A DNA stretch of 64,000 nt from Lentzea sp. NBRC 105346 (GTDB lineage Bacteria; Actinomycetota; Actinomycetes; Mycobacteriales; Pseudonocardiaceae). The stretch is from the NCBI RefSeq assembly GCF_030269605.1, contig NZ_BSTQ01000001.1, positions 620,001-684,000 on the forward strand, read 5' to 3'. The notes below the pieces were generated by a model. The model ran no database searches, was not told the origin of the DNA, and worked only from the letters and a program-made list of their open reading frames with translations. A program made the position numbers and the translations under genes. Of the stretch, positions 4,529 to 37,262 are shown piece after piece. The stretch's first letter is position 1. The number at the start of each line of letters is the position of its first letter.

Positions 4529-5200
4529 GTGACAACGATCGTGGCCTTCCACGCCCACCCCGACGACGAGGTCCTGCTGACCGGCGGCACCCTGGCCCGC
4601 GCCGGCGCCGACGGCCACCGCGTCGTCGTCGTGGTGGCCACCGACGGCATCATCGGGGAACACACCGAAGATCGCCTGAACGAGCTGCGGACCAGCGCCG
4701 CGATCCTCGGCGTGCACCGCGTCGTATGCCTGGGCTACGCCGACAGCGGCCACGGCCCGCTCCTTTACGACGACCCGCCGGACCGCACACGGTTCGTCCG
4801 CGCTCCCGTCGAGGAGGCCGCCGGCCGGTTGGCCGAGGTGCTGCGGGAGGAGTCGGCGTCCGTGCTGATCAGCTACGACGCCAACGGCGGCTACGGCCAC
4901 CGCGACCACGTTCAGGTCCACCACGTCGGCGCCCGCGCCGCCCAGCTGGCCGGCGTGACGCGAGTGCTGGAGGCGACGATGCCGCGCGAGCTGGTCCGTT
5001 CCGGCTACACGCCCCGCGCGCAGATCACCCACTCGTTCAACGTCCGCGGGTACGCCCGCAAGAAGCGCGCCGCGCTGGCCGCGCACGCCTCTCAGCTGCA
5101 CCGCGGCCGCAGTGGCCGAATCATGCGTTTGATCGTCCGGCTGCCGCTACCGTTGTTCGCGCTGCTGCTCGGGCGCGAGTGGTTCAGGACGGGGGCCTGA
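4529..5200 (+). CDS. PIG-L family deacetylase (LmbE-like)
   Basis: Encodes 223 aa from a GTG; no strong ribosome site is seen. The metal-binding AHPDDE motif is at residues 9-14, directly after the first beta strand. The second zinc motif is in GHRDHVQVHH around residues 130-140. This is the GlcNAc-PI de-N-acetylase fold, which includes MshB and Mca of mycothiol metabolism. The short length and the lack of the longer MshB insertions make a general N-acetyl-sugar or amide deacetylase more likely. The stop lies one base before the ATG of the following alpha/beta hydrolase, so the two are probably co-transcribed. Confidence 0.85.
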   Translation: MTTIVAFHAHPDDEVLLTGGTLARAGADGHRVVVVVATDGIIGEHTEDRLNELRTSAAILGVHRVVCLGYADSGHGPLLYDDPPDRTRFVRAPVEEAAGRLAEVLREESASVLISYDANGGYGHRDHVQVHHVGARAAQLAGVTRVLEATMPRELVRSGYTPRAQITHSFNVRGYARKKRAALAAHASQLHRGRSGRIMRLIVRLPLPLFALLLGREWFRTGA

Positions 5201-30697: not shown

Positions 30698-31567
30698 TCA
30701 ACTACCGAAGAGATCGCCGAGGGTTTTCACCCGGTCCAACACATCATCAGCGAGAAACACCAGGTCATCGGGAGAGCGGCACTCCTCGACCTCGTCCCAC
30801 GTGATCGGCGCCGACACCGACGGCCGCTCCCGCGCCCGCAACGAGTACGGCGCCACCGTCGTCTTCGCCGGATTGTTCTGACTCCAGTCGATCAGCACCT
30901 TCCCGGTCCGCGCCGCCTTCGCCATCGTCGACACCACCTCCCGCGGCGTCTCCCGCGCCAGCCGCTGCGCGAGCTCCTTCGCATACGCCGACGTGTCCTT
31001 GCTCGGAGCCCGCGCGTACAACTGCATCCCCTTGGACCCCGACGTCTTCGCCCACGCGTCCACGCCGTCGTCCTCCAGCGCCGCCCGCAACCGCTGCGCC
31101 ACCCGGCAGCACTCCACCACCGTCGCCGGCGCACCCGGATCCAGGTCGAACACCAGCAGATCCGGATCCCGCCGCCCACCACGCGGCCCCGACGTCCACT
31201 GTGGAATATGCAGCTCCAGCGCCGCCAGATTCGCCAGCCACACCAACGTCGGCAAATCGTCGACCATCACGAAATCCGCGTAGTCGTTACCCCGGCTCGA
31301 ACCAGGAGTCTCGATCCGCACCGTCCGCACCCACTCCGGCGCATGCTGCGGAACGTTCTTCTCGAAGAACGACTCCCCACCCACCCCGTTCGGAAAACGC
31401 CGCAACGTCACCGGCCGATCCTTCAAGTGCGGCAACAACACCGGCGCGATCCGCCGGTAATAGTCGATCACCTCGGCCTTGGTGAACCCGTACTCCGGGT
31501 ACAGCTCCTTCTCCAGGTTCGTCAGCTTCAGCTGCCGATCCTCAACCCTCACCACCGTGGTCGACAA
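30698..31567 (-). CDS. ligD: NHEJ polymerase (LigD polymerase domain, AEP primase-polymerase)
   Basis: Encodes 289 aa, starting at a TTG at 31567 with GAGGAGG about 6 nt upstream. The start lies within the 3' end of the ligase gene (26-nt overlap). The metal-binding pair of the archaeo-eukaryotic primase fold is Asp141 and Asp143 in VFDLDPG. KLTNLEKELYPEYGFTKAEV and TSGSKGMQLYAR are also LigD-Pol hallmarks. The enzyme fills gaps and adds ribonucleotides at DNA ends held by Ku during non-homologous end joining. In mycobacteria this is the N-terminal domain of a single LigD; here it is a separate gene. Confidence 0.92.
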   Translation of the reverse strand: MSTTVVRVEDRQLKLTNLEKELYPEYGFTKAEVIDYYRRIAPVLLPHLKDRPVTLRRFPNGVGGESFFEKNVPQHAPEWVRTVRIETPGSSRGNDYADFVMVDDLPTLVWLANLAALELHIPQWTSGPRGGRRDPDLLVFDLDPGAPATVVECCRVAQRLRAALEDDGVDAWAKTSGSKGMQLYARAPSKDTSAYAKELAQRLARETPREVVSTMAKAARTGKVLIDWSQNNPAKTTVAPYSLRARERPSVSAPITWDEVEECRSPDDLVFLADDVLDRVKTLGDLFGS

Positions 31568-32999
31568 CGGCCACCTCCTCGGGCGTCTTGTCCGGCCGCA
31601 ACCCGCGCCACGCCGGGAACCGCATCCGCCCATCCGGCGTCCACTGCCGGAACACCACCTCGGCGACCAGCTCAGGACGCACCCAGCGCGCACCCTTCGC
31701 CCGCTCCCGCGGCACCTCGGTCACGAACGGCGACTTCTTCCGGTCCAGCGCACCCAGCCGCTCCGTCAGCACCCGCAGCTCCGCGTCACCGAACCCCGTC
31801 CCGACACTCCCGACGAACCGCAGCCCGCCACCCTCCGGGATACCCAGCAGTAGCGCCCCGATCACCCCCTGCCGCTTACCCTCACCCGGACGCCACCCGC
31901 CGATCACCACCTCCTGCGCCATCAGATCGGTGACCTTCCGCCAGTGCGGCGACCGCTGACCCGGCAGATACACCGAGTCCAGCCGCTTCGCCACCACCCC
32001 CTCGAGCCCCTGCTCCCGGCTCGCCGCCAGCACCGCCGCACCCTCACCCCGATACGACGGGGGAGTCAGCCAATGCGGACCGCGCAGCTCCAACCCCTCC
32101 AGCAGCTCCCGGCGCTTCGCGAACGGCACGTTCAGCATCGGCCGCCCATCCAGATGCAACAGGTCGAACACCAGCAACGTCACCGGCGTCGACTTCATCG
32201 CCCGCCGCGCCTGCGCCGCGTTCTGCACAACATGCATCCGCTGCTGCAACGCCGCGAAACTCGGCCGCCCACCCTGGATCGCGACGATCTCCCCGTCCAG
32301 CAACGCCTGCGTCGCCCCCAGTTGCTCACCCAGCCCCTGCAGCTCCGGATACGTCGCCGTCACGTCATTGCCCACCCGGCTGAACGCCTGCACCCGGCCA
32401 CCCTCGACCAGAAGGACCGCCCGCACCCCGTCCCACTTGAACTCATACGCCCACGCGTCGTCATCCGGCGGCAGGGGACCGGGGGAGGCCAGCATCGGCT
32501 TCAGCGACTCCGGCAGCTCCTGCCAGTCCGGCCGCGCCGCCTCGTGCCGGCGGCGCACCATCCAGTCCTTCGACCCGTGCTCCCGCTGGAAGAACACGAA
32601 CTCGCCCTGCGTCCGCTCACCGTGCAACACCACGTCGATCTCACGGTCGGACCACTTCACCGTCTCGTAGCGGCCGCGGTCCCAGATGAACATCCGCCCG
32701 CCGCCATACTCGCCCTTCGGGATCTCACCGTGAAAAGTCGCGTACTCCAGCGGGTGATCCTCGGTGTGCACGGCCAGCCGAATCGTCCCCGGCGTCGGCG
32801 GCAACCCCTTCGGCACCGCGAACGACACCAGCACCCCGTCCCGCTCCAGCCGCACATCCCAGTGCAACCGGCGAGCATGATGCTCCTGGATCACGAACGT
32901 GTCGTTGTTCCCCTTCGGCAACGCCGTGTCATCACCGGGGACAGGCTCCGGCGTCTTCGCCGGATCCCTCTTGCGGCGGTACTCGTCGAGCCCCGCCAT
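31542..32999 (-). CDS. ligD: ATP-dependent DNA ligase LigD (3'-phosphoesterase and ligase domains)
   Basis: Encodes 485 aa. Residues of about 30-150 form the 3'-phosphoesterase domain, with FVIQEHHARRLHWDVRLE, HTEDHPLEYATF and GEIPKGEYGGG. Residues of about 165-480 form the ligase domain, with nucleophile Lys188 in EFKWDGVRAVL, LLDGEIVA, GLEGVVAKR and WRKV. The enzyme trims 3' ends and seals breaks brought together by Ku. The ATG directly follows the ku stop (TAG-ATG), so ku and ligD form one transcript. The polymerase domain is carried by the next gene. Confidence 0.94.
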   Translation of the reverse strand: MAGLDEYRRKRDPAKTPEPVPGDDTALPKGNNDTFVIQEHHARRLHWDVRLERDGVLVSFAVPKGLPPTPGTIRLAVHTEDHPLEYATFHGEIPKGEYGGGRMFIWDRGRYETVKWSDREIDVVLHGERTQGEFVFFQREHGSKDWMVRRRHEAARPDWQELPESLKPMLASPGPLPPDDDAWAYEFKWDGVRAVLLVEGGRVQAFSRVGNDVTATYPELQGLGEQLGATQALLDGEIVAIQGGRPSFAALQQRMHVVQNAAQARRAMKSTPVTLLVFDLLHLDGRPMLNVPFAKRRELLEGLELRGPHWLTPPSYRGEGAAVLAASREQGLEGVVAKRLDSVYLPGQRSPHWRKVTDLMAQEVVIGGWRPGEGKRQGVIGALLLGIPEGGGLRFVGSVGTGFGDAELRVLTERLGALDRKKSPFVTEVPRERAKGARWVRPELVAEVVFRQWTPDGRMRFPAWRGLRPDKTPEEVAVVDHGGEG

Positions 33000-33809
33000 C
33001 TACGCGGAGCTGGCCTTTTTCTTCGTCGGCTTCTTCCGCCCGGCCTTCGCCTTCTCGACGCTGCGCTCCAACGCCGTCATCAGGTCGATGACCTCACCCT
33101 TGTCCTCGGTCTCCGGCTGCTCGGGCAACTCCGCACCCTCGGCCTTCGCCGCGATCACCTGCTCCAGCGCGTTGCGGTACTCGTCGTTGAACTCGGTCGG
33201 ATCGAAGTCCCCGGCCATCGACTCCACCAGCGACGTCGCCATCTTCAACTCCTGCGGCCGCACCTCGATGTCCTGGTCCAGGAAGTCGAACTCCGCCTTG
33301 CGGATCTCGTCCGGCCACAACATCGTGTGCAACACCAGCACGTCGTCCCGAGCCCGGATCGTCGCCAGCTTCTCCTTCTGCCGCATCGTGATCTTCACGA
33401 TCGCCAGCTGACCCGTCTTCGTCAGCGTGTCCCTGAGCAGCACATACGGCCGCGCCGCCGCCTTGTCCGGCTCCAGGTAGTACGTCGACTGGAAATAGAT
33501 CGGATCGATCTCCTCGGCGTCCACGAACTCCAGCACGTCGATCGCCCGGTCCGTCTTCACCGGCAGCTTCTCGAAGTCCTCGTCATCCATGATCACCATG
33601 CGGCCGTCGTCCAGCTCGTACCCCTTCGCGATGTCGGAGTACTCCACCTCGTTGCCGCACACCTGGCACACCCGCTTGTACCGGATGCGCCCGCCGTCCT
33701 CCCGGTGCACCTGATTGAACCGGAAATCGTGCTCCTCGACCGCCGAGTAGAGGCGCACGGCGATGGTCACCAGACCGAAGGAGATAGCCCCACGCCACAC
33801 GGATCTCAT
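33000..33809 (-). CDS. ku: DNA end-binding protein Ku
   Basis: Encodes 269 aa opening MRSVWRGAISFGLVTIAVRLYSA, the canonical start of bacterial Ku, with CQVCGNEVEYSDIAKGYEL downstream. The C-terminus is a short Lys-rich tail (KAGRKKPTKKK) that helps recruit LigD and bind DNA. Ku forms a homodimeric ring on double-strand ends and starts end joining. It leads the operon ku-ligD(PE-Lig)-ligD(Pol)-GrpB-SARP. A recombinase gene lies 80 bp upstream on the same strand. The 80-bp gap contains no obvious terminator. Confidence 0.95.
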   Translation of the reverse strand: MRSVWRGAISFGLVTIAVRLYSAVEEHDFRFNQVHREDGGRIRYKRVCQVCGNEVEYSDIAKGYELDDGRMVIMDDEDFEKLPVKTDRAIDVLEFVDAEEIDPIYFQSTYYLEPDKAAARPYVLLRDTLTKTGQLAIVKITMRQKEKLATIRARDDVLVLHTMLWPDEIRKAEFDFLDQDIEVRPQELKMATSLVESMAGDFDPTEFNDEYRNALEQVIAAKAEGAELPEQPETEDKGEVIDLMTALERSVEKAKAGRKKPTKKKASSA

Positions 33810-33889
33810 GACAACTGAGTACCCCTGAAATGGGATTTTCGCACTACAGTGTCACCCACATGGCCTAACGTTTTGGATCTGCCGGAAGC

Positions 33890-34915
33890 TCATGACTCCA
33901 TTGCGTTCAGCGCCCGGTACGTCCGGTTGGCCGCCACCGCCGCCCGCCGCTCCCGCGCCGTCGCCTCGATGTAGTTCTGCGACGTCGCCAGCGACGCGTG
34001 CCCCAGCAGCGCCATGATCTCGCTCGCCGAAGCACCGTCCTCGGCCAGCCGCGTCGCGAACGTGTGCCGCAACGCGTGCAGGTTCGCGCCCGTCGGCACC
34101 CGGTCGTGCAGCCCCGCCCAGCGGAAACACGACTTCACCAGGTACTCCAGCCCACCGCGCCCGATCGGCTCACCATGCCGGTCCCGCAGCAACGACGAGT
34201 CCCGGTCGAACCGCCCCTGCGGGAACCGCCGCCGGCACGACTCCAGGTACGCCGTGATGATGCGCTCCATCGGCGACTCGATCGGGATCGACCGGTCGCG
34301 GTTGCCCTTGCCCCGCACGTGCAGCCGCTGCTCACCCGGCCGGCCCACGATCGACGCCAGCGTCAACGTCCGCATCTCCGCGGATCGCAGCCCCGCGACC
34401 AGCCCCAGAGCGAGCACCAGGACGTCCCGCTCCGGCCACGGGTCCCGCCCCTTGCGGGCACCCTCCGCGGCCGCCGACAGCAGCTGCTCCGGGGTGTCCT
34501 CACCACGCAGCGGCTTCGGGACCAGGGGAGGGGTCTTCGGTCGCGCCACGGCGCCCATCGGGTTGCCCGCCAGCAGGTCCTCGGCCACGCAGAACGTCAG
34601 GAACTGGTTCCACGTCGACCACGCGCGCAGCACCGAGCTCTTCGCGTGGGTGTCGGCGAAGACGCCGAACGCCATGCGCAGGTTCGCGCCGGTCAGGTCT
34701 CTCACGTCGAGCTCTGTGACATCGACCTGGAGCGCGGAGGCGAGCAGGGCGTTCACCCCGGCCAGATCACGCTGGTAGGCCAGGGTCGTGTGCGGGGAGT
34801 CCTTCCTCGGTCGGCGGGCGAGGAAGAAGCTGTCCTGAGCGGCGAGCACTTGCACACTGATCTTGTACCGCACGGGTCTGACAGTTCCGGCACCGCACCC
34901 CTCGAAGTTGATCAT
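33890..34915 (-). CDS. Tyrosine recombinase (XerC/D-like integrase)
   Basis: Encodes 341 aa with the full catalytic set: Arg177 in AGLRSAEM, His280 and Arg283 in HALRHTFATR, His306 in LLGHASLATSQ, and nucleophile Tyr315. An N-terminal SAM-like core-binding domain spans about residues 30-140. The start is uncertain because no good ribosome site precedes the ATG at 34915. The length is close to Xer proteins but the N-terminus is about 20-30 residues longer. A dif-like site lies 286 bp upstream, with inverted repeats between. It could be a Xer-type enzyme, or the integrase of an element that uses dif. Confidence 0.9.
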   Translation of the reverse strand: MINFEGCGAGTVRPVRYKISVQVLAAQDSFFLARRPRKDSPHTTLAYQRDLAGVNALLASALQVDVTELDVRDLTGANLRMAFGVFADTHAKSSVLRAWSTWNQFLTFCVAEDLLAGNPMGAVARPKTPPLVPKPLRGEDTPEQLLSAAAEGARKGRDPWPERDVLVLALGLVAGLRSAEMRTLTLASIVGRPGEQRLHVRGKGNRDRSIPIESPMERIITAYLESCRRRFPQGRFDRDSSLLRDRHGEPIGRGGLEYLVKSCFRWAGLHDRVPTGANLHALRHTFATRLAEDGASASEIMALLGHASLATSQNYIEATARERRAAVAANRTYRALNAMES

Positions 34916-35110
34916 GGCGGGGCACAGGGGAGTTGTGCTGGATAATGGCGATTATGCATGAAACGTCCGTTTTGCCGGATTCTGAACCGGTGGGGATAAC
35001 GGCGGGATTTGCGGGGAATCCACGCGTAATAGACGGCACTTCCGTGCGTGTTCTAGACGACTCATCGATGCCGACCGCGCTCCGGCATCGCCGAGGGCTC
35101 AAGCGCACGG

Positions 35111-35158
35111 GCATCTGCAGGGGCCGCCGACCTGCCCGTCGGAGACGCCTGCAGATGC
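35111..35158. repeat. Inverted repeat with nested stem beside the dif-like site
   Basis: Perfect 11-bp arms GCATCTGCAGG (35111-35121) and CCTGCAGATGC (35148-35158). Between them lies a smaller stem, CCGAC (35127-35131) with GTCGG (35138-35142). Together they could form a branched hairpin or cruciform. It may be a recombinase accessory site, a terminator or an RNA structure. Confidence 0.6.
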
Positions 35159-35160
35159 TC

Positions 35161-35190
35161 TGCGAAGCCCCTTCTGGGACGATCTTCGCA
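35161..35190. repeat. Second inverted repeat beside the dif-like site
   Basis: TGCGAAG (35161-35167) and CTTCGCA (35184-35190) are perfect 7-bp arms with a 16-nt spacer, only 11 bp from the dif-like site. Function unknown. Confidence 0.5.
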
Positions 35191-35200
35191 GGTCACGTAT

Positions 35201-35228
35201 TACGCCGATAATCTACATTATGTCAAGT
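35201..35228 (+). other. dif: Putative chromosomal dif site
   Basis: A 28-bp sequence with the layout of bacterial dif. The XerC-side arm is TACGCCGATAA, the central six bases are TCTACA, and the XerD-side arm is TTATGTCAAGT. The XerD arm matches the Escherichia coli arm at 9 of 11 positions, and the ATAA-N6-TTAT core is exact. dif is where XerC and XerD resolve chromosome dimers at the replication terminus. Local strand composition also changes here. The site overlaps the longest possible reading frame of the next gene, whose true start is probably further in. Confidence 0.75.
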
Positions 35229-35264
35229 AACGTGGATCAGGACGCGTCAGGCACACTCCTCCAC

Positions 35265-36059
35265 ATGCGTTTCGCGATCTACGTCCCCTGTTATGGCGCC
35301 TACGGCGATCCCGCTGTGCTGAGCGAACTCGCGGTCACCGCCGAGGCGGCCGGCTGGGACGGCTTCTTCATGTGGGACCACGTCATCGGCGATCCGCTCG
35401 TCGCAGACCCCTGGGTCACCCTGGGCGCCATCGCCGCCCGGACCTCGACGATCACCCTCGGGCCGATGATCACGCCGGTGCCGCGGCGCCGGCCGTGGAA
35501 GCTGGCCCACGAGGCGAGCACGTTGCAGCGGTTGTCCGGCGGGCGGCTGATCCTCGGCGTCGGTATGGGTGTCCCCCGCGATTATTCGTCGTTCGGCGAA
35601 CCGCCGCAGAAGGGGCGGGCGAGCCGCCTCACCGAAGGCGTCGAGCTGGTCAAGAAGTTGTTGTCCGGCGAGGAGGTTCAGCACGACGGCGAGCACTTCC
35701 AGGCGTCCGGGGTGCGGTTCGCGCCGGTGGACGTGCCGGTCTGGGCCAGCGGGCTGTGGCCGCGCAAGGTGCCGTTCCTGGCGGCGAAGGACGCGGCGGG
35801 CCTGTTCCCCATCATGCGCGACGACGAGACCGGGTTCGCGGTGCCGACACCGGAGCAGGCGAAGCAGATGAAGGCCGAGTTCGTGGCCGCCGGCGGTCCC
35901 GCGGACGGTGATCTCGCGATCTGGGGTGGCGGGGCGCTGCCGGAGAAGGATCTCGTCGGTGCCTATGCCGAGGCGGGCGCGACGTGGTTGTTGCTGGACG
36001 GCTGGAAGTCCTCGGTGGACGAATTGCGCCGGAACATCGCGGCCGGTCCCCCGCGGTAA
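35265..36059 (+). CDS. LLM class flavin-dependent oxidoreductase
   Basis: Encodes 264 aa from the ATG at 35265 (MRFAIYVPCYG), which matches the usual start of the family. An upstream in-frame ATG at 35220 would place coding sequence across the dif-like site and adds no family similarity. AGWDGFFMWDHV, TSTITLGPMITPVPRR and SGGRLILGVGMG define the luciferase-like TIM barrel that uses F420 or FMN. It is shorter than most members (about 300 aa). Substrate unknown. The first rightward gene after the terminus-like site. Confidence 0.87.
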   Translation: MRFAIYVPCYGAYGDPAVLSELAVTAEAAGWDGFFMWDHVIGDPLVADPWVTLGAIAARTSTITLGPMITPVPRRRPWKLAHEASTLQRLSGGRLILGVGMGVPRDYSSFGEPPQKGRASRLTEGVELVKKLLSGEEVQHDGEHFQASGVRFAPVDVPVWASGLWPRKVPFLAAKDAAGLFPIMRDDETGFAVPTPEQAKQMKAEFVAAGGPADGDLAIWGGGALPEKDLVGAYAEAGATWLLLDGWKSSVDELRRNIAAGPPR

Positions 36060-36150
36060 CAGAGTGTCACTTTCGGCCCAGGGGTAATCCTTCCGCTGGT
36101 GTTCGGCGGAATCGGGTTGCTGATCATGCTGGATGGCTAGCCTGATCTTC

Positions 36151-36840
36151 ATGGGCATCGGGGTGTACGACGAGAAGGGTGCCGCGTACGCCGAGCACTC
36201 GGCTCGCAATCCGTGGAACGACCTGTACGACCGTCCGACGATTCTGGCGCTGGCCGGTGATGTGGCGGGTAAGCGCGTGCTGGACGTGGGGTGTGCGGCG
36301 GGTCATCTGACGGGTGCGTTGACACAGCGGGGTGCGTCGGTCGTCGGGGTGGACAGCAGTTCGGTGTTGTTGTCGATCGCGCGGTCGAAGTGGCCGGCGG
36401 AGTTCGTGTGGGCGGATCTGGCGGAGCCGCTGGACTTTCCCGATGGTTCGTTCGACGTGGTGACGGCGTCGTTGGTGTTGCACTACCTGCCGGACTGGTC
36501 CACTCCCCTGGCCTCGCTGCACCGGGTGTTGCGGCCGGGCGGGGTGCTGGTGATGTCGGTGCATCATCCGTGTGAGGACTGGCGGTGGTTCGACCTGCCG
36601 AACTACTTCTCGACGGAGCTGGTGACCGACGAGTGGGTGGTGGCCGGTGAGCGGATGGTGGTGCAGTACTACCACCGGCCGTTGAGTTCGGTGTTCGCTT
36701 CGTTGCGGGAGGCGGGTTTCGTGGTGCACGACATGGTGGAGCCGATGCCGTTGCCGGAGTGCGAGCAGGTGGATCCGCGGACGTACGAGAGTCTGACGAC
36801 GAAGCCGCGGTTTCTGTATTTCAAGGCTGTCGCGGGATGA
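36151..36840 (+). CDS. Class I SAM-dependent methyltransferase
   Basis: Encodes 229 aa from the ATG at 36151; an ATG at 36133 is possible and neither has a clear ribosome site. Motif I is VLDVGCAAGHLTGAL, the acidic turn is in GVDSSSVLLSIA, and FDVVTASLVLHYLPDWSTPL and HRVLRPGGVLVMS follow. It closely resembles the methyltransferase at 8813-9505 along its whole length. It probably modifies a small molecule. The stop overlaps the ATG of the HIT gene (ATGA), so the two are co-translated. Confidence 0.87.
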   Translation: MGIGVYDEKGAAYAEHSARNPWNDLYDRPTILALAGDVAGKRVLDVGCAAGHLTGALTQRGASVVGVDSSSVLLSIARSKWPAEFVWADLAEPLDFPDGSFDVVTASLVLHYLPDWSTPLASLHRVLRPGGVLVMSVHHPCEDWRWFDLPNYFSTELVTDEWVVAGERMVVQYYHRPLSSVFASLREAGFVVHDMVEPMPLPECEQVDPRTYESLTTKPRFLYFKAVAG

Positions 36841-37262
36841 CGTGCCCGATCTGTGCGAAGCATCGCGGTGAGGGTGATCTGGTCGGTCCGGTGTTGTGGG
36901 CCGACGACCTCGTTGTGGTGTCGCACATTGGTTCTGGGTTTCCTGGCTATGTGTTGGTGGAGACGCGGCGGCATGTGGCGTACTTCGATGAGCTGACGCC
37001 GGATGAAGTGGTGGCGGTGGCGCGGGCCGCGCATGGGGCGGCGCGGGTGTTGAAGGCGGTGCTGGAGCCGTTGTTCGTGTTCTCGTGCATCGTGGGGCGC
37101 GGGGTGGCGCATTTTCATCAGCACGTGTTCGTGCGTCATCCCGGTACTCCCCCGGAGCTGGACTGGACGTGGGTGGAGAGTCCGTTGTGGCCGGCCGCGG
37201 AGATCGAGGCGTTGTGCGACTCGCTGCGGGCGGGCATGACAGATGTCATGGCCGGGTCGTGA
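36837..37262 (+). CDS. HIT family protein (histidine triad)
   Basis: Encodes 141 aa. A zinc-like CPIC begins the protein at residues 3-6. The catalytic histidine triad is HFHQHVF near residues 94-100, preceded by GRGVA. HIT proteins hydrolyse or transfer nucleoside phosphoramidates, AMP-lysine or dinucleoside polyphosphates. Translation is coupled to the methyltransferase by ATGA. The gene ends 45 bp before the ABC transporter operon. Confidence 0.87.
   Translation: MTCPICAKHRGEGDLVGPVLWADDLVVVSHIGSGFPGYVLVETRRHVAYFDELTPDEVVAVARAAHGAARVLKAVLEPLFVFSCIVGRGVAHFHQHVFVRHPGTPPELDWTWVESPLWPAAEIEALCDSLRAGMTDVMAGS

What the first reader, a model, noticed from the sequence alone, without database searches (positions are those of the whole stretch)
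35201..35228. A dif-like site places the replication terminus in this window
The 28-bp sequence has both Xer arms and a 6-nt centre. Its XerD-side arm TTATGTCAAGT matches the E. coli arm at 9 of 11 positions, and the ATAA-N6-TTAT core is exact. It is a single occurrence lying outside any well-supported gene start, and strand composition shifts at the same point.
Basis: partly seen in the sequence, partly recalled or inferred. Interest (0 to 1): 0.8.

Follow-up and report, generated by a model that had tools for sequence, protein, structure and literature searches.

The report
Second Xer system beside dif

Summary
The 28-mer at 35201-35228 is a genuine dif: 25 of 28 positions match the published Frankia dif, and it is single-copy in the 9.39-Mb assembly. 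It lies in the 4.7-kb interval where a KOPS-like octamer reverses; 120 of 121 copies on its 1.197-Mb contig point at it.

The new part is next door. A third Xer-type recombinase (33890-34915, minus) and a second 11-6-11 site (34935-34962) lie just left of dif, although XerC- and XerD-type proteins are encoded elsewhere. Of 200 family genomes, 107 carry the recombinase and all 107 have a site match; 88 of the 93 others have none. The site was near dif in the 82 of those 107 genomes whose positions I saw, also where the gene has moved away. Micromonospora and kin show a mirror image (43 of 44; the 44th had no dif match). A relative whose contig looks linear lacks dif, site and recombinase. Best reading: a second, single-recombinase resolution system parallel to XerCD/dif. 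Binding and catalysis are inferred, not shown.

The parts
35201..35228 (+). dif: XerC arm 35201-35211, centre 35212-35217, XerD arm 35218-35228
34935..34962 (.). second Xer-type site, imperfect inverted repeat 11-6-11 (GTGCTGGATAA-TGGCGA-TTATGCATGAA; 7 of 11 arm pairs here, 9.9 of 11 on average in 37 genomes); only match in the window, one place in the assembly at up to 1 mismatch
33890..34915 (-). third Xer-type tyrosine recombinase, 341 aa, six catalytic residues present, transcribed away from dif
32480..32487 (+). nearest KOPS-like CGGGGGAG left of dif, pointing at dif (left edge of the polarity flip)
37147..37154 (-). nearest KOPS-like CGGGGGAG right of dif, pointing at dif (right edge of the polarity flip)

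Best explanation
The window holds the terminus landmark of a (presumably circular) Lentzea chromosome with two Xer-type sites. The first is a canonical dif for XerC/XerD. The second, 266 bp away, is an 11-6-11 inverted-repeat site that is most likely recombined by the third Xer recombinase encoded beside it. Proposed mechanism: KOPS-like motifs bring FtsK to this point; sister copies of the second site are paired by two dimers of one recombinase, which exchanges strands across the asymmetric 6-bp centre and resolves chromosome dimers or unlinks sister termini, in parallel with or as back-up to XerCD/dif. Shown by computation: dif identity, the polarity flip, gene-site co-occurrence, site-dif linkage independent of gene position, catalytic residues present, and a family separate from XerC/XerD. 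Inferred: that the recombinase binds and recombines this site, that FtsK takes part, that the chromosome is circular, and that the role is dimer resolution.
For: 107 of 107 recombinase-bearing family genomes have a site match and 88 of 93 others do not. In a second, partly overlapping draw of 298 genomes of the order, 77 of 77 with the recombinase at E 1e-60 have an exact site match. The site was 261-3,323 bp from dif in 64 of 64 listed pairs and near dif in 18 more genomes. Where the gene is elsewhere the site stays at dif (G023 537 bp; G034, G012, G101), and no site lies within the 3-4 kb read around 10 of 10 displaced genes. Mirror arrangement in 43 of 43 Micromonospora-type genomes with a dif match. 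Catalytic R-K-H-R-H-Y in 64 of 64 proteins aligned. Two XerC/XerD-type proteins of at least 212 bits elsewhere in 36 of 36 genomes. G022, whose contig ends form a perfect inverted repeat over the 20 kb read, has no dif, site or recombinase match. Of 8 distant homologue loci read, 6 have an exact-core site upstream of the gene. Best fold matches are XerA and XerH, one of them XerH on a palindromic difH.
Against: No binding, cleavage or recombination was tested. XerCD/dif appears complete, so a second system is not needed a priori, and 93 of 200 family genomes lack the recombinase. The window's own site is the least symmetric seen (7 of 11 arm pairs). 19 of the 107 genomes have more than one match to the site pattern, and in the order draw 11 of 221 genomes without the recombinase at E 1e-60 have an exact match (8 of family f8, 3 draft Micromonospora). 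In Micromonospora the site overlaps the start of the gene, so regulation is possible there. The linear-chromosome contrast rests on one assembled contig; G060 of that genus also lacks all three but its topology is unknown. One of 8 distant homologue loci has no site and one only a relaxed one. The structure model is moderate (pTM 0.53) with TM-scores below 0.5. Genomes are related, so the Fisher p-value is too small.
Confidence: 0.6

Rival explanations
1. The third recombinase binds its site mainly as an architectural or regulatory factor (for XerCD recombination at dif, SMC unloading or terminus positioning), and recombination at its own site is rare or absent.
For: The site stays within about 0.3-3.3 kb of dif. 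A paper cites XerD as an SMC unloader at dif in B. subtilis (PMC13342612, passages).
Against: All six catalytic residues are present in 64 of 64 proteins, and the site has the 11-6-11 geometry of a recombination site.
Confidence: 0.17
2. It is a domesticated or still active integrase with its attachment site, left by an element that inserted beside dif.
For: Distant homologues (34-39% identity in the 20 of 60 records listed) sit on large Mycobacteriaceae and Rhodococcus plasmids, most of those read with a similar site upstream. Terminus regions attract mobile elements (PMC2731167, passages). 19 of 107 genomes have an extra match to the site pattern, not examined.
Against: In the own assembly only one site match and one dif. 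No phage homologue at E 1e-20. Side and orientation of the gene are fixed in 70 of 70 linked family genomes and mirrored in 43 of 43 others, and the site persists at dif without the gene.
Confidence: 0.12
3. The second site is the operator or promoter element of the recombinase gene.
For: In the window it ends 19 bp... upstream side of the start codon: site 34935-34962, gene start 34915. In Micromonospora it overlaps the gene start.
Against: In G019, G190, G055, G017 and G006 gene and site are 3-8 kb apart, and in G023 and the diverged group much further, with the site at dif; no copy near the displaced genes (10 of 10).
Confidence: 0.04
4. The linkage is plain synteny inherited by descent, without functional coupling.
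For: All genomes are related, so counts are not independent.
Against: In the 41 regions the recombinase family is near dif in 17 genus groups, the next gene family in 8 (most regions were chosen for having the recombinase, so this ratio is biased). Side is mirrored between families, and the site stays when the gene leaves.
Confidence: 0.07

Closest known systems
XerCD/dif of Actinobacteria (Frankia alni dif, PMC3025954, passages)
   Same: The 28-mer at 35201: geometry, 25 of 28 letters, single copy, terminus
   Different: Nothing tested here differs except the GC-skew criterion; it is an ordinary dif
XerS/difSL and XerH/difH single-recombinase systems (PMC5357621, passages)
   Same: One recombinase gene next to its terminus site; roughly symmetric site; XerH is among the best fold matches
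   Different: Those species use the single system as the alternative to XerCD; here XerC/XerD-type proteins and a canonical dif are present too. XerS model scores 51.6 bits against a cut-off of 267. Centre is 6 nt; difSL has an 11-bp centre
Single-recombinase dif/Xer system of Legionellales (PMC9765430, passages)
   Same: One recombinase acting at a terminus site of about 30 bp
   Different: That paper reports no XerC or XerD orthologues there; other lineage; its recombinase was not compared here
Plasmid Xer-type recombinases of Mycobacteriaceae and Rhodococcus
   Same: Fall with the third recombinases and apart from XerC/XerD in the tree; similar ATAA-N6-TTAT inverted repeat upstream in most of those read
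   Different: A clade of their own, 34-39% identical; on plasmids; role untested
IMEX elements that integrate at dif (named in PMC5357621, passages)
   Same: Extra Xer-type site at the terminus
   Different: No element boundaries or duplicated dif seen; own recombinase

Membership tests
dif (XerCD chromosome dimer resolution site) | 28 bp, two 11-bp arms and 6-bp centre, ATAA/TTAT core | tested here: met
dif (XerCD chromosome dimer resolution site) | single copy per chromosome | tested here: met
   up to 3 mismatches, assembly 98% complete
dif (XerCD chromosome dimer resolution site) | at the reversal of FtsK-motif-like polarity | tested here: met
   the octamer was picked by its polarity and its recognition by FtsK is not shown
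dif (XerCD chromosome dimer resolution site) | opposite oriC | tested here: inconclusive
   Not possible in the own 67-contig assembly; met in relatives (13 at 0.471-0.519)
dif (XerCD chromosome dimer resolution site) | at the GC-skew shift | tested here: not met
   Local shift has the wrong sign and the cumulative maximum is 277 kb away. Weak criterion: in Proteobacteria the distance ranges up to 199,612 bp (PMC2731167, passage)
dif (XerCD chromosome dimer resolution site) | XerC and XerD encoded in the genome | tested here: met
   XerD at C19 345 bits, over cut-off; XerC-type at C7 308.8 bits, below the 335 cut-off, which 0 of 36 genomes reached
dif (XerCD chromosome dimer resolution site) | XerCD binding and dimer resolution | not testable with these tools
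   -
Single-recombinase Xer systems (XerS, XerH type) | recombinase gene adjacent to a terminus site | tested here: met
Single-recombinase Xer systems (XerS, XerH type) | replaces XerC/XerD in the genome | tested here: not met
   36 of 36 genomes searched have two XerC/XerD-type proteins
Single-recombinase Xer systems (XerS, XerH type) | protein belongs to the XerS family | tested here: not met
   51.6 bits against 267
Single-recombinase Xer systems (XerS, XerH type) | one protein recombines the site | not testable with these tools
   -
XerC or XerD equivalog | score over the NCBIfam cut-off | tested here: not met
   152.1 of 335.15 (XerC), 123.1 of 329.6 (XerD); outside the 12 XerC/XerD rows with 100/100 support
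Integrase of an element at dif | duplicated att site or element boundaries | tested here: not met
   one dif and one second-site match in the assembly

The most novel reading that the evidence does not exclude
Many Pseudonocardiaceae and Micromonosporaceae chromosomes carry two independent Xer systems at one terminus: XerCD/dif and a third recombinase with its own inverted-repeat site kept within about 0.3-3 kb of dif. They work together on circular chromosomes and are lost together when a chromosome becomes linear.
Probability: 0.6. Interest if true: 0.85.

Novelty: new variant of a known kind. Interest (0 to 1): 0.75.

Why it matters
In the papers seen, bacteria use either the XerC/XerD pair or one single recombinase for dimer resolution. 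A site-linked second system beside a complete XerCD/dif asks why one is not enough, perhaps because of large, multi-genome hyphae (speculation). It gives a clean genetic test (delete either, both or neither), a possible sequence marker of circular topology, and a possible new site-specific recombination tool for actinomycetes.

Tried and rejected
GC skew as terminus evidence: rejected, wrong sign locally and peak 277 kb away. Operator hypothesis for the second site: rejected as sole role. Phage origin: no homologue in 50,697 phage records at E 1e-20. Relatives in the wider phylum: 3 of 396 genomes at E 1e-50, all three of the same order. Family genomes with a site match but no recombinase: five. 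G030, G044, G077 and G106 show no exact-core second site in the about 10 kb on either side of dif; G094 has a one-mismatch match 18.6 kb from dif. Inverted repeats between second site and dif in Lentzea were seen but not explained. The tBLASTn scan of fetched loci was superseded by genome searches. First ORF extractions for the tree took wrong frames and were redone. The symmetry count used a 30-letter frame and a shifted centre; it was redone and only one search is used. GGGGGAG was searched in papers with FtsK and Streptomyces: 0 occurrences in the ten listed.

Biases: most regions were chosen because gene or dif positions were known (7 of 40 chosen for having no linked recombinase). The octamer CGGGGGAG was picked as the most polar of 8,444 octamers counted on either side of dif; its breakpoint was then fitted freely. 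Counts use positions I copied. One search listed positions for only part of its 112 genomes, so 64 of 107 pairs were counted there, and 24 of the 34 diverged recombinases were typed in. The dnaA-dif distance was computed for 13 of the 19 relatives, those with contig lengths then known (G014 has 2 contigs). Later checks gave G059 0.501 and, with rounded lengths, G120, G146, G085 about 0.50 and G052 about 0.555; G184, in 3 contigs, was left out. Seven of 60 plasmid records were read. Three of the 73 closer recombinase matches carry a stop flag in the match (G001, G011, G190).

Full report
What is there. The 28-mer TACGCCGATAATCTACATTATGTCAAGT is at 35201-35228. The Frankia alni dif, seen in passages of PMC3025954, differs at 3 of 28 positions. 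The core pattern occurs once in the window and in 0 of 100 shuffles, and the 28-mer with up to 3 mismatches once in the 9,385,835-base assembly. In the family, 156 of 200 genomes have the 20-bp core with at most 1 mismatch; 35 of the other 44 have a form with up to 3 mismatches of a 22-letter pattern, some of which may be chance. The genus is Lentzea by inference: relative G051 of the same genus has a contig of 327,507 bases, as has Lentzea xinjiangensis in the named set.

Is it the terminus? I joined all of contig C1 (1.197 Mb) and counted octamers left and right of dif. The most polar one, CGGGGGAG, points at dif in 120 of 121 copies; with the break left free, the best fit lies between C1:652,480 and 657,147, which contains dif (window 32480-37147). 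In 41 regions of about 10 kb on each side of dif (own region included), GGGGGAG points at dif in 324 of 334 copies. In 13 relatives dif lies at 0.471-0.519 of the contig from dnaA; of further ones checked later G052 is nearer 0.555 with a rounded length. The own genome is in 67 contigs, with dnaA on C11, so this test was done only in relatives. GC skew does not help: it flips minus to plus at dif, between divergently transcribed genes, and the cumulative maximum is at C1:377,855.

The neighbour. A search for XerD in the own genome gave XerD on C19 (over the cut-off), a second strong protein on C7 that scores 308.8 bits to XerC, and a third tyrosine recombinase 285 bp from dif, window 33890-34915 minus, among 16 matches. 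It is Pfam Phage_integrase and scores 152 bits to XerC and 123 to XerD, far under the cut-offs. All six catalytic residues are present in it and in all 64 proteins aligned. In a tree of 64 proteins the third recombinases and their plasmid relatives are separated from 12 XerC/XerD rows with 100/100 support; the program warns that long branches meet, naming three plasmid rows. A predicted structure (mean pLDDT 74.8, pTM 0.53) matches XerA, XerH and XerD, with query TM-scores of 0.39-0.48.

The second site. Aligning 23 Lentzea stretches (5 exact duplicates among them) showed an invariant block TGCTGGATAATGGCGATTATGCAT left of dif. It is a second ATAA-N6-TTAT site, window 34935-34962. Counted on 28-letter sites picked by that core alone, its arms pair at 9.9 of 11 positions on average in 37 regions (range 7-11; outer, unforced positions 5.9 of 7), against 5.2 of 11 (1.3 of 7) for dif in 41. 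The centre is fully symmetric in 0 of 37. The window's own copy is the least symmetric, 7 of 11. In the window the pattern TGSATAA-N6-TTATSCA occurs once, with 0 of 100 shuffles, and at one place in the own assembly.

Co-occurrence and linkage. Of 200 family genomes, 107 have the recombinase at E 1e-40 and 112 a match to the site pattern at up to 1 mismatch. All 107 with the recombinase have a site match; of 93 without it, 5 do and 88 do not. By the counts, 88 of the 107 have one matching place and 19 more than one; the extra places were not examined. Of the 73 closer recombinases (66-100% identity), 71 share a contig with dif; 70 of these lie within 12 kb, all on the XerC-arm side and transcribed away, and G023 is 531 kb off. 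A diverged group (49-55% identity, 34 genomes) is unlinked: of 24 typed, 14 share dif's contig at 143 kb to 3.8 Mb and 10 are on other contigs. Yet the site was 261-3,323 bp from dif in 64 of 64 pairs counted, median 480, and near dif in 18 further genomes: 82 of the 107, which is every one whose position I saw. Around 10 displaced genes no site is present in the 3-4 kb read. The site follows dif, not the gene.

Other families. In a draw of 298 genomes of the order (it shares genomes with the family draw), 77 have the recombinase at E 1e-60 and all 77 an exact site match; of the other 221, 11 have an exact match: 8 of family f8 and 3 draft genomes of genus g60. One of the f8 genomes, G206, has a weaker homologue (E 4e-54) with the site just upstream. 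Genus g60 of family f15 is Micromonospora: the contig length 7,061,565 of G321 is that of M. soli. Of 44 recombinase-bearing genomes of f15 and f9, 43 have a dif match at up to 2 mismatches. In all 43 the site lies 331-1,405 bp and the gene 392-1,440 bp from dif, now on the XerD-arm side, the gene again transcribed away. G336, the 44th, has its site match 1.7 Mb from its recombinase. Exact GGGGGAG copies between site and dif occur in 7 of the regions, all f15 or f9, 27-45 bp from the site and pointing at dif; in two g16 genomes a copy about 21 bp outside the site points away from dif. In the phylum draw no genome outside the order had a match at E 1e-50, but Kribbella proteins of 75-79% identity exist, context unseen. 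Homologues were found in 60 plasmid records, the 20 listed at 34-39% identity. Of 8 distant homologue loci read (seven plasmid records and G206), 6 have an exact-core site upstream, 1 only a relaxed one and 1 none.

A natural experiment. In genus g22, G089 has dif, site and recombinase. G022 and G060 have none of them at the thresholds used. The two ends of the single 11.79-Mb contig of G022 are identical in inverted orientation over the 20 kb read, as in linear chromosomes. G060's topology is unknown; the start of its contig C1 does not resemble those ends.

Mechanism. I take the second site and recombinase as a single-recombinase Xer system for dimer resolution or terminus unlinking, beside XerCD/dif. 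The linkage to dif, the catalytic residues and the joint absence fit this; binding and catalysis are untested. It works like XerS/difSL or XerH/difH but is not a member: XerC/XerD-type proteins are present (36 of 36 genomes, none over the XerC cut-off) and the protein fails the family cut-offs.

Novelty. Searches of the open paper library (between 2 and 20 papers listed each) showed no listed paper on a third Xer recombinase or second site next to dif in actinomycetes. I read passages only, of PMC3025954, PMC5357621, PMC13342612, PMC9765430, PMC8138268 and PMC2731167. Most subscription papers are not held, so this is not proof of absence.

Noticed in passing
L311 and L321 (G022:C1 ends): Inverted repeat, perfect over the 20 kb read, at both ends of an 11.79-Mb contig: a probable linear chromosome in this family, without a dif match.
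   Followed up: partly
window 30698-33809: Ku and a split LigD (ligase/phosphoesterase and polymerase parts as two genes) directly behind the recombinase; Ku also near dif in some other genera.
   Followed up: partly
L275, L276, L261: A further Xer-like recombinase near dif, at about 2-4 kb in G256, G397 and G078 and roughly 11-110 kb in several other genomes.
   Followed up: no
L297:3892-3919 and 5008-5035: Mycolicibacterium rufum plasmid with the second-site-like repeat upstream and a dif-like site downstream of the recombinase homologue, a pairing like that on the chromosomes; not seen in the other plasmid loci read.
   Followed up: partly
window 35060-35200: Three inverted repeats between second site and dif, partly conserved in Lentzea.
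   Followed up: no
Kribbella, another order by recall, has recombinases 75-79% identical to the window's: a likely transfer.
   Followed up: no
family f8: Eight f8 genomes have one to four exact matches to the second-site pattern without a close recombinase; in G206 one lies beside a distant homologue.
   Followed up: partly
genera g3, g5, g24: Relatives with altered dif arms or no dif match at all, some of them incomplete genomes.
   Followed up: no
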